A DNA stretch of 64,000 nucleotides from Vavraia culicis subsp. floridensis (Eukaryota > Microsporidia > Pleistophoridae): assembly GCF_000192795.1 (NCBI RefSeq), contig NW_007360607.1:62001-126000 (forward strand), written 5' to 3'. The notes under the pieces are model-generated. The model made no database searches. It saw nothing but the letters and a program-made list of their open reading frames with translations, and was not told where the DNA came from. The translations under genes were made by a program, and so were the position numbers. Below, in pieces: positions 26,304 through 31,547 of this stretch; position 1 is the stretch's first letter; each line of letters opens with the position of its first letter.

Positions 26304-26631
26304 TTAATTGACAGAATGCTTTCTCGGCAACGCCAATCTTCTCACGTATTCATTTCCAACAACTGACAGCAAAAGACATTGAAATATCAACTGAGCTGTG
26401 GTAAGGGGTGCTCATTTTGGTCTGGCATGGTACAGCACATAAGAACTTACGGTTGATACTGGGTTTAAATACACGATATATCTCACACGCTACGGAAAGA
26501 CACAAAATCCTTGTACCGTATTACTGAGATGACTAATAACTGCTTCAGAAGTAATGAAAAATGGGTCTAAGTCTTAAAAGAACGGGTGAAATGACTAACT
26601 AGTAAACAAGGAAATAGGTCATGAAGACTTT

Positions 26632-27109
26632 GAATGAACGGACAGCACGTTCCATTTCCAACATACGAGGCCAAATCACTCTATGTAAGAGGAACATTCG
26701 ATCAAAGCTGGCTCGGTGGTGTGCTACAACGTGCAAAGACGAACAGCAATGGTGCACTCCCATGCTCACTCATGCCACCACGTAAGTGTTATGTGTATTA
26801 AGCAGATTTGATGGGAGTTGCACATTCTCTTGTATTATATCGGGCTTGGGCAGATGCACAAAGACTAGAAAGTGCTAAATCGGTATTGTGAGCACTGGAT
26901 AGCAGCATAGATCATAAATGCTGGGCCCTGAACATAGATTAACAGTAACTACGGGTAGTGGTGCTCTCTCAAGATGGCACAAGCATTGTCCTACAATCTC
27001 AATACACAGCTGTATCAGACGGGTCTTATAGCTAGGATAAGTCCTAGTTAAGCATGTTTAATGAAATGGTTGTGTAGAGCAGTTTTATCAAAGTTGTTGC
27101 TGGAAAAAA
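26632..27109. repeat. dispersed ~477-bp repeat, copy 1
   Basis: About 98-99% identical by eye to 31072-31547, same orientation, with a 2-nt insertion near 26750 relative to copy 2 and a few substitutions. Similarity begins abruptly at GAATGAACGG and ends at an A6 run. No terminal inverted repeats and no obvious target-site duplication. Could be a short retroelement derivative or a segmental duplication. Confidence 0.9.
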
Positions 27110-28578: not shown

Positions 28579-28959
28579 TCAACACTTCTTATTCTCCTTC
28601 ATTTTGTCAATCTCATCCTCAATCATCTTTGACATGATTTTTCTAAAGGAATGATAATAGTGGTAGTAGATGTCGTTGGTCTTCTGGCCGCGAGCCTCCG
28701 TTTTGTGTTCCGACGTGACGTTCTTCGCCAAGTACCCTCTTGGTCCCTTAACCAGCTCGAATTCGCAAATCTGCTGTGGCAATAAATAGACCACCATTCC
28801 AGGTTGTGTAGAAATCGATGAGAAGTGAAAAAACACTGAAATTAAAAAGAATAACTTACCGTCTTCGTTTATCTCTGGATCATGAGGTACAAGGAAACCA
28901 TAGCCCCGTTCGTAACTGAAGAACTTAATGGTACCTTTGTAACGTTTTTTTGCTCCCAT
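28579..28959 (-). CDS. cold-shock-domain (Y-box type) RNA-binding protein with a 24-nt intron
   Basis: Single cold-shock domain followed by a charged C-terminal tail. RNP-1-like RGYGF is at residues ~17-21. RNP-2 reads EDVFFHFSSI only after removing a 24-nt segment (28836-28859) that begins GTAAGT and ends TTTCAG on the minus strand. Left in, it adds eight hydrophobic residues in the middle of the RNP-2 strand without a stop. Spliced protein is 118 aa; the unspliced frame is 126. CCC lies at -13 to -15. Expected to bind single-stranded RNA/DNA in translation or mRNA storage. The CSD match is strong; the exact role is not. Confidence 0.85.
   Translation of the reverse strand: MGAKKRYKGTIKFFSYERGYGFLVPHDPEINEDGKLFFLISVFFHFSSISTQPGMVVYLLPQQICEFELVKGPRGYLAKNVTSEHKTEARGQKTNDIYYHYYHSFRKIMSKMIEDEIDKMKENKKC
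28836..28859 (-). other. predicted 24-nt spliceosomal intron
   Basis: Minus-strand GTAAGT at the 5' end, TTTTTAATTTCAG at the 3' end, with the likely branch adenosine only a few bases from the AG, as in the ultrashort microsporidian introns. It interrupts the codon that becomes GTG (Val) of DVFFHF. Its length is a multiple of three, so retention keeps the frame. Confidence 0.85.
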
Positions 28960-31071
28960 AATAAAATGAATGGGTGATTTTAATAGTTTATCAGTAAAAA
29001 AGAACGTGAAGACGAGTTATTAAATTTAAATGAAATCATTTTAATTGTTGTCTAAGATTATTAATAAATCAAGTTCAACGAATTATTCAGGTCTTGGGAC
29101 TGTGTTGTGGACTGCCAGCAAAGAAAAACCAAGAAGCGAAAAAAATGATAAAAGTGATAGAAAAGAAAGTTGAGAAGTTACGTCATGTAAAAGGATAGTG
29201 ACGATGAAAACTGGCACATACGAGCGGAACATCCTGTTTTTGGCAGTGCTACACCGTGTTAGATGCGGGCAACCATTGCTTTGGTCCATAACTACGGATT
29301 ATGTGCTGCTGCAGGACACGTGCAATAATAGGTCCATAAATGCGGCAATCGGCATTAAACGGACATTTTAGTGGTGTATATCACCGGTAATGGCATAGAG
29401 CTGCTGGCACTAAAAGGAATATTCCCTTGCGTATTTTCTTTCCATCTTCAGAAAATCACTGAAAGAGAAAGAAACAAATTTAAATTAAAATAGCACTACA
29501 TTACGTCAAGAGAAAGTGTTGGCAGTGCGGGTCGGTGTGAAAAGCGGTACTCGAGTGAAATACCACGAAAAGCAGACGTGTTGATGGATGTTTATTTTGA
29601 TGCCCGGATGGTGAAACCGTGTAATTAATCAAGGGGATATCAAGGCATTTGCAAAATGTGAGCGCATTACGTTTTGTATTCCATGGTATTAAGCAGCACC
29701 ATGCAAGCAGGCTGTACGTAGATAGTACTGATTCTGGACAGTGCGATCCCTACAAGTGTTGCCAAGGCATTTCACCAGTACCGTGAGAGACATTGCCAGT
29801 CCTGTAAATCACACAAATTTTTGACAGATTAAAACAACGATGCGATAAACAATCGATAAAAATCCACTATTTCAAAAAGTGCGCATTGCCGGTCTTTATG
29901 TCCCTTAACACCTATAAATACTTTTATAACAGTTTTGGAAGGTTTTTGGTTGCGAATTGAAATTCGTGAGTACAAAACGATTCGTGCAACACTTTTATTT
30001 AGTTAATACTTGAAAAGTAAATTAATTTAAGGTCTCTGCACACAACACCGTTTTAACATGGTACTAGTACAAAAAATAGAAAAATGTTAGTTTTAGCGAA
30101 TCAGATCACATCGCGGTGATAATTCTCTAAATATTGTTTTGCAGACGTACACGGCATGATCACGGAGAATTATTTGGGCAGATAGCAACGGCACTCCTCA
30201 ATTCAGAGAAATGAACATAGTCCTGTAATATTTGTACCCGGACAGCACAGGAAAGGAGTGCAACATAAAAACTTGGTATCTCATTCAAGAAAAAAGACAA
30301 AATTACAAAATGCAGGTGCAACGTAGCATTCGTAGGATGTGCATGGTCAATGTTGCTATGCGATGAAATAGCGAAGAGGAGCAAATATGACTTTAAACGT
30401 GCAGAAATGCCGAATTGTTAGTTAAACGTGCGTACCGGCCAAGAAATGGATTGCATCATTTATCAGCAGCTAATTTATTGCTTCAAATTTCGAATTTACC
30501 AGCTCATTGATCATCAGTGCTGCTATTTAATTGTTCTGAGATATGCAATGGTATCGGATACATGCATTGATTGAATGTATAGGCCTTCCTCACCTTGTAT
30601 TGTGGAAAGGCACGAACTATTAAGAGCCCTGAATAGTTCATAGCACTTTATGGCACTATTGCTGTATTTTTTGAGCGAAATTGCATTTAATGTAATTTAC
30701 TAGAACCGAAATTCAGGTTGCATTAATTTATATATTCTGATAAATTGAGCAATTAAACTCGCAATTTGCAGTGTCTGAGTTATTGATCTGTGACAGATCA
30801 CGTTGTTGAAAATATATTTGTTCCTGATCAGCACACCTCTTCGATTCGATACAGAGCCATCAGTGCAAATTAATTTATCAACCAGTGCTTAAACAACGTG
30901 CACGAAAGTGGCATGGCACAGAACACTCCCATGATTGGATATACATGAAGTACGAATTGTAAGGGAAACAGTATCTAAAAAATACCAGCACAGCATCATG
31001 CGTGCTGATCAAGGCTGACCAAAAAATGGGCGTGATGAAACAACAGTGCTTGCAGCTTGTTCTGGATAGTG

Positions 31072-31547
31072 GAATGAACGGATGGCACGTTCCATTTCCA
31101 ACATACGAGGCCAAATCACTCTATGTAAGAGGAACATTCGATCAAAGCTGGCTCGGTGGTGTGCTACAACGTGCAAAGACGAAGCAATGGTGCACTCCCA
31201 TGCTCACTCATGCCACCACGTAAGTGTTATGTGTATTAAGCAGATTTGATGGGAGTTGCACATTCTCTTGTATTATATCGGGCTTGGGCAGATGCACAAA
31301 GACTAGGAAGTGCTAAATCGGTATTGTGAGCACTGGATAGCAGCATAGATCATAAATGCTGGGCCCTGAACATAGATTAACAGTAACTACGGGTAGTGGT
31401 GCTCTCTCAAGATGGCACAAGCATTGTCATACAATCTCAATACACAGCTGTATCAGACGGGTCTTATAGCTAGGATAAGTCCTAGTTAAGCATGTTTAAT
31501 GAAATGGTTGTGTAGAGCAGTTTTATCAAAGTTGTTGCTGGAAAAAA
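31072..31547. repeat. dispersed ~477-bp repeat, copy 2
   Basis: Second copy, 4.4 kb from the first. In this copy a frame entering from upstream (Met at 31026) stays open to 31223 and ends PMLTHATT; the 2-nt insertion breaks it in copy 1. Both copies carry a GTAAGT...TTAAGCAG segment of exactly 24 nt (31220-31243 here). Confidence 0.9.

What the first reader, a model, noticed from the sequence alone, without database searches (positions are those of the whole stretch)
28836..28859. 24-nt in-frame intron inside the RNP-2 strand of a cold-shock protein
Removing a GTAAGT...TTTCAG segment restores a canonical DVFFHFSSI motif; retaining it inserts eight hydrophobic residues with no stop. The intron is among the shortest plausible spliceosomal introns, and its length (a multiple of 3) makes retention silent to the reading frame. 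This could be a splice-controlled on/off switch for RNA binding, or simply poor selection against retention.
Basis: partly seen in the sequence, partly recalled or inferred. Interest (0 to 1): 0.75.

Follow-up and report, generated by a model that had tools for sequence, protein, structure and literature searches.

The report
Known tiny intron, microsporidian cold-shock gene
A 24-base intron interrupts the gene for a small RNA-binding protein in a microsporidian parasite; the intron is real but was already reported, and its frame-preserving length looks like chance rather than a switch.

Summary
Minus strand 28836-28859 reads GTAAGTTATTCTTTTTAATTTCAG. Removing it restores an intact cold-shock domain (Pfam CSD 35.6 to 46.3 bits); keeping it adds eight in-frame residues, GKLFFLIS, without a stop. 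It looks like a microsporidian U2-type mini-intron: Prp8, U2 and U6 are present, and ten genes here carry domain-supported introns of 22-28 nt. It is already published: Desjardins et al. 2015 (PMC4435813, section 7 and Fig. 2 legend) describe this intron in the cold-shock gene of Vavraia culicis and Trachipleistophora hominis. The proposed on/off switch is weakly supported. One close relative (P0003) has, by inference from its protein, a 25-nt frame-shifting intron at the same place. One of the ten introns is a multiple of three. The insert lies before VFFHF, leaving RNP-2 whole, and a modest AlphaFold model of the retained form keeps the cold-shock fold. Best reading: an ordinary relict intron, probably spliced inefficiently, whose retention happens to be readable. 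No transcript data were available.

The parts
28579..28959 (-). cold-shock-domain gene, whole reading frame (126 aa with intron retained, 118 aa spliced; stop included)
   Evidence: Pfam CSD PF00313, 35.6 bits retained and 46.3 bits spliced; the only CSD match listed for the genome at E <= 1
28860..28959 (-). exon 1 (100 nt, ends in phase 1, ...GAA GAC G)
28836..28859 (-). 24-nt spliceosomal intron GTAAGTTATTCTTTTTAATTTCAG
   Evidence: gap in homologues at this place; an intron in this gene is described in print for V. culicis and T. hominis
28836..28844 (-). TAATT branch-site-like motif joined to the 3' splice site (TAATTTCAG)
   Evidence: matches the regular expression quoted in the T. hominis genome paper; U2 here carries GUAGUA
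28579..28835 (-). exon 2 (begins TG TTT TTT CAC: completes V, then FFHFSSI)

Best explanation
This is an ordinary, already published U2-type mini-intron in the cold-shock-domain gene of a Vavraia/Trachipleistophora-like microsporidian. The reduced spliceosome removes it from some transcripts, probably inefficiently, giving the 118-aa RNA-binding protein. Unspliced transcripts happen to be readable here, giving a 126-aa form with a longer loop in front of strand VFFHF that probably still folds. The multiple-of-three length is chance or drift, not a conserved switch. Shown here: sequence, homology, other introns, snRNAs. From print: the gene is among the spliced genes of V. culicis, and low efficiency is a general feature. 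Inferred: splicing in this very genome and tolerance of the insert.
For: Removing the 24 nt restores the domain. Of 24 microsporidian-like homologues (P0001-P0024), 17 run straight into (V/I)FFHF without an insert, 2 read through one (P0001 the window's own, P0003), and 5 do not cover the place. P0003 reads out of frame through what I decode as a 25-nt GTAAGT...TCNG at the same place. Prp8, U2 and U6 are present. Ten domain-supported introns of 22-28 nt occur in this genome, among them the four non-ribosomal genes named for V. [quoted passage not shown] 18). Desjardins 2015: introns in 27 V. culicis genes, median efficiency 25.3%, cold-shock gene shown spliced and unspliced, same position in two fungi. 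One of 10 introns is 3n; a rough simulation gives 0.054 for a 3n stop-free intron, hence 0.43 for at least one among ten. AlphaFold of the retained form keeps the strands, with part of the insert at low confidence, and its best PDB matches are cold-shock proteins.
Against: No RNA data were available. The motif is no commoner than its reversed control. In T. hominis RNA-seq splicing at the motif was seen for one gene (S23) of 85 predicted introns, so this intron may rarely be spliced there. Prp8 is also kept by species without splicing. The 25-nt length in P0003 is inferred from one protein. The AlphaFold models are modest (mean pLDDT 66.8 and 73.6). A second 3n open candidate (L060, no domain support) exists.
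Confidence: 0.88

Rival explanations
1. Splice-controlled switch: retention makes a distinct protein form, altered or dead in RNA binding, and splicing is regulated by life stage.
For: Frame is kept with no stop; the insert touches the N-terminal edge of the RNP-2 strand and costs 10.7 bits of CSD score; microsporidian splicing is often incomplete, and a few E. cuniculi introns differ in splicing level between time points.
Against: P0003 has, by inference, a 25-nt frame-shifting intron; VFFHF is intact in both forms; the retained form passes the Pfam cut-off and is modelled as a cold-shock fold; I found no regulatory evidence.
Confidence: 0.05
2. Intron on its way to loss: splicing has become rare and the 24 nt now serve as coding sequence, as proposed for in-frame intron-like sequences of Spraguea lophii.
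For: The S. lophii paper reports in-frame, apparently unspliced intron-like sequences and suggests this route to intron loss; in T. hominis one gene of 85 predicted introns was seen spliced at the motif.
Against: Splice signals are intact; P0003 keeps a frame-shifting intron by inference; Desjardins counts the V. culicis gene among spliced genes.
Confidence: 0.06
3. Not an intron: an ordinary eight-residue coding insertion in this lineage.
For: The motif is not enriched over the reversed control (65 against 116); the frame is open.
Against: GT-AG boundaries fall on the homology gap; out-of-frame counterpart in P0003; V. culicis gene reported as spliced.
Confidence: 0.01

Closest known systems
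Intron of the cold-shock-domain gene of Vavraia culicis and Trachipleistophora hominis (Desjardins et al. 2015, PMC4435813, section 7 and Fig. 2b,c legend)
   Same: Same gene type and same insert-versus-gap pattern; the other three non-ribosomal intron genes named there also have introns here
   Different: Probably nothing. The figure and supplement are not held, so I could not compare letters, position or length directly
Encephalitozoon cuniculi mini-introns (22-76 nt; PMC3629993, passages)
   Different: All E. cuniculi introns are reported there to carry stops or shift the frame; this one does neither
In-frame intron-like sequences of Spraguea lophii S24 and L5 (PMC3749934, section 10)
   Same: Short introns that can be read through to give a small insertion
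   Different: Those sit next to the start codon; this one lies 100 nt into the gene, inside a domain

Membership tests
Microsporidian U2-type short spliceosomal intron | GTARGT 5' splice site, TAATT-type branch motif close to the 3' AG | tested here: met
   GTAAGT...TAATTTCAG; motif as quoted
Microsporidian U2-type short spliceosomal intron | Removal restores a conserved protein; homologues lack the segment | tested here: met
   17 of 24 homologues without insert, 2 with, 5 not covering the place
Microsporidian U2-type short spliceosomal intron | Spliceosome present in the genome | tested here: met
   Prp8 domain, U2 at two places, U6; U2 GUAGUA and U6 ACAGAG seen (their role is recalled). Other components not searched
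Microsporidian U2-type short spliceosomal intron | Spliced transcripts in this organism | not testable with these tools
   No RNA data here; gene reported as spliced in V. culicis
Cold-shock-domain protein | Pfam CSD above curated cut-off, RNP-1- and RNP-2-like motifs | tested here: met
   46.3 bits spliced and 35.6 retained, cut-off 27; KFFSYERGYGFL and VFFHF present. The RNP motif names are recalled
Regulated alternative (retained) intron | Conserved frame-keeping retention across relatives | tested here: not met
   The one relative that could be tested (P0003) decodes to 25 nt; inferred from its protein. T. hominis length not seen
Regulated alternative (retained) intron | Condition- or stage-dependent splice ratio | not testable with these tools
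   no RNA data

The most novel reading that the evidence does not exclude
In this species retention has become frame-silent, so incomplete splicing makes two cold-shock protein forms at once, and the 8-residue longer form has acquired its own RNA-binding properties.
Probability: 0.05. Interest if true: 0.5.

Novelty: already known. Interest (0 to 1): 0.14.

Why it matters
Little beyond confirmation. It suggests that the published cold-shock intron is 24 nt and frame-silent in one genome and, by inference, 25 nt and frame-shifting in a close relative: a small natural comparison for how tolerable intron retention is when splicing is poor. Automated ORF calling on such genomes will report the 126-aa form.

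Tried and rejected
A scan of viral contigs for related DNA gave 378 pattern matches and no relative. Motif counts were dropped as evidence because none exceeded its reversed control (1 against 1; 17 against 26; 65 against 116).

Of the 65 motif matches, 57 lie in loci that I held; the other eight, all 36-46 nt long, were not fetched. The script (70 loci, at least 40 aa gained) printed 22 candidates. Nine were counted as domain-supported. Sedlin_N (L021) was missed by that filter and added, so the filter can miss others. Dropped: L009, L028, L034, L043, L054 (no domain scan run, judged spurious by eye), L055 (three Pfam matches, all below cut-off) and L060 (27 nt, 3n and open, no Pfam match). 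Counting L055 and L060 would make 2 of 12 introns 3n. The six multicopy-family candidates (L019, L022, L026, L046, L062, L063) were left out of the ten; L022's is 24 nt but retention truncates it. The 0.054 figure rests on base frequencies that I chose, not fitted ones. PMC3809491 is not held.

Full report
Observation. The minus-strand ORF at 28579-28959 encodes 126 aa and contains GTAAGTTATTCTTTTTAATTTCAG at 28836-28859, starting after nucleotide 100 of the gene, in phase 1. Read through, it adds GKLFFLIS and no stop; removed, it gives ...NEDVFFHFSSI.... The Pfam CSD score is 35.6 bits with and 46.3 bits without the segment, cut-off 27. It is the only CSD match listed for the 5.63-Mb genome at E <= 1.

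Relatives. Two protein searches gave 24 proteins (P0001-P0024, E at or below 3.1e-15) that look like microsporidian orthologues. P0001 is listed without a source, as the tool does for the window's own protein, and has the insert. In 17 of 24 the sequence runs from E-D or E-E straight into (V/I)FFHF without an insert (P0002, P0004-P0009, P0011-P0015, P0018-P0021, P0023); six of these bear names from annotated genomes and might have been spliced by the annotator. Five do not cover the place: P0010, P0016 and P0017 start at or after the junction, P0022 (Hamiltosporidium) lacks the VFFHF stretch, and P0024 has an unrelated N-terminus. P0003 (86% identical over 81% of the query) is informative: its N-terminus is the +1 frame of exon 1 (NEAMVFLCHMIPRLMKM against NGAMVSLYLMIQR*TKT in the window), followed by VSYSPLIS and then VFFHF. 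Read as codons this is GTA AGT TAT TCN CCN YTN ATH TCN G, that is 25 nt, then exon 2 in frame. This is inference from one protein, and an assembly error is possible. If right, a close relative has an intron at the same position whose retention shifts the frame.

Splicing in this genome. A Prp8 domain, U2 at two places and U6 are present; U2 carries GUAGUA and U6 carries ACAGAG. Prp8 alone would say little, since species without splicing keep it. The relaxed motif quoted in the T. hominis genome paper (PMC3486916, passages) gives 65 matches against 116 for the reversed control, so motif counts prove nothing by themselves. I examined loci covering 57 of the 65; the eight left out are all 36-46 nt long, so the size range below is biased to short introns. 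Ten matches restore a recognisable protein: cold shock 24 nt, ThiF 22, Sedlin_N 23, PTH2 22, L39 25, L18 23, S26 25, S27 28, S17 25, L10a 26. The spliced Sedlin_N protein itself was not rescanned; its domain match runs up to the intron. One of ten is a multiple of three, where one third is expected by chance (probability of one or fewer 0.10). In a rough simulation a 3n, stop-free intron has probability 0.054, so at least one among ten has probability 0.43. The frame-silent length therefore needs no special explanation.

Already in print. Desjardins et al. 2015 (PMC4435813; passages and section 7 seen; figure and supplement not seen) report introns in 27 V. [quoted passage not shown] The legend of Fig. 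2b,c describes the cold-shock gene of V. culicis and T. hominis unspliced and spliced, and an intron at the position identical to V. culicis in Spizellomyces punctatus and Puccinia graminis, which the authors take as ancestral. All four of those genes carry domain-supported introns here, and the window's G+C is 40.2% against 39.7% for V. culicis, so the window is probably from V. culicis or a close relative; this is not proven. The Spraguea lophii paper (PMC3749934, passages and section 10) supplies the precedent of short in-frame introns that can be read through. In T. hominis RNA-seq (PMC4654818, passages) splicing at the motif was seen for one gene of 85 predicted introns. In E. cuniculi (PMC3629993, passages) all introns are said to carry stops or shift the frame.

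Effect of retention. The insert sits before V of VFFHF, so the RNP-2 core survives. AlphaFold of the retained form (mean pLDDT 66.8) has strands 6-15, 20-25, 42-45, 64-71 and 76-83, with residues 34-38 below 50; the intronless relative P0006 (73.6) has 6-15, 20-25, 34-37, 56-64 and 67-75. The best PDB matches of the retained model are cold-shock proteins such as CspA. These modest models suggest a tolerated loop extension; they do not measure RNA binding, and the lower confidence of the retained form fits a cost as well.

Verdict. Real, ordinary for its group, already described. The switch idea is not excluded but has no positive support.

Noticed in passing
L026 1501-1555; L046 1467-1522 (minus); L064 1509-1564, 4105-4160, 6426-6481; also G000:C13:96283-96338: Six copies of a membrane-protein-like gene family, each with two tandem 22-23-nt intron motifs around an 11-nt exon. 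In the five distinct sequences tested, removing both gives 235-245 aa; the four other choices give 142-193 aa. A paper search for microsporidia plus microexon listed two papers, by title not about microsporidia.
   Followed up: partly
P0022 (Hamiltosporidium tvaerminnensis cold-shock orthologue): The annotated protein lacks the VFFHFSSI stretch right after the intron position; possible mis-annotated splice or real deletion.
   Followed up: no
window 26621-26801 and 31002-31249: Near-identical ORF-bearing segments (MNGQHVPFPTYEAKSLYVRGTFDQSWLGG and MNGWHVPFPTYEAKSLYVRGTFDQSWLGG) on both sides of the cold-shock gene, perhaps a repeat element.
   Followed up: no
L060 1514-1540 (minus), G000:C41: A 27-nt intron-like sequence right after an ATG, also a multiple of three and stop-free, in an unassigned 378-aa ORF.
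   Followed up: partly
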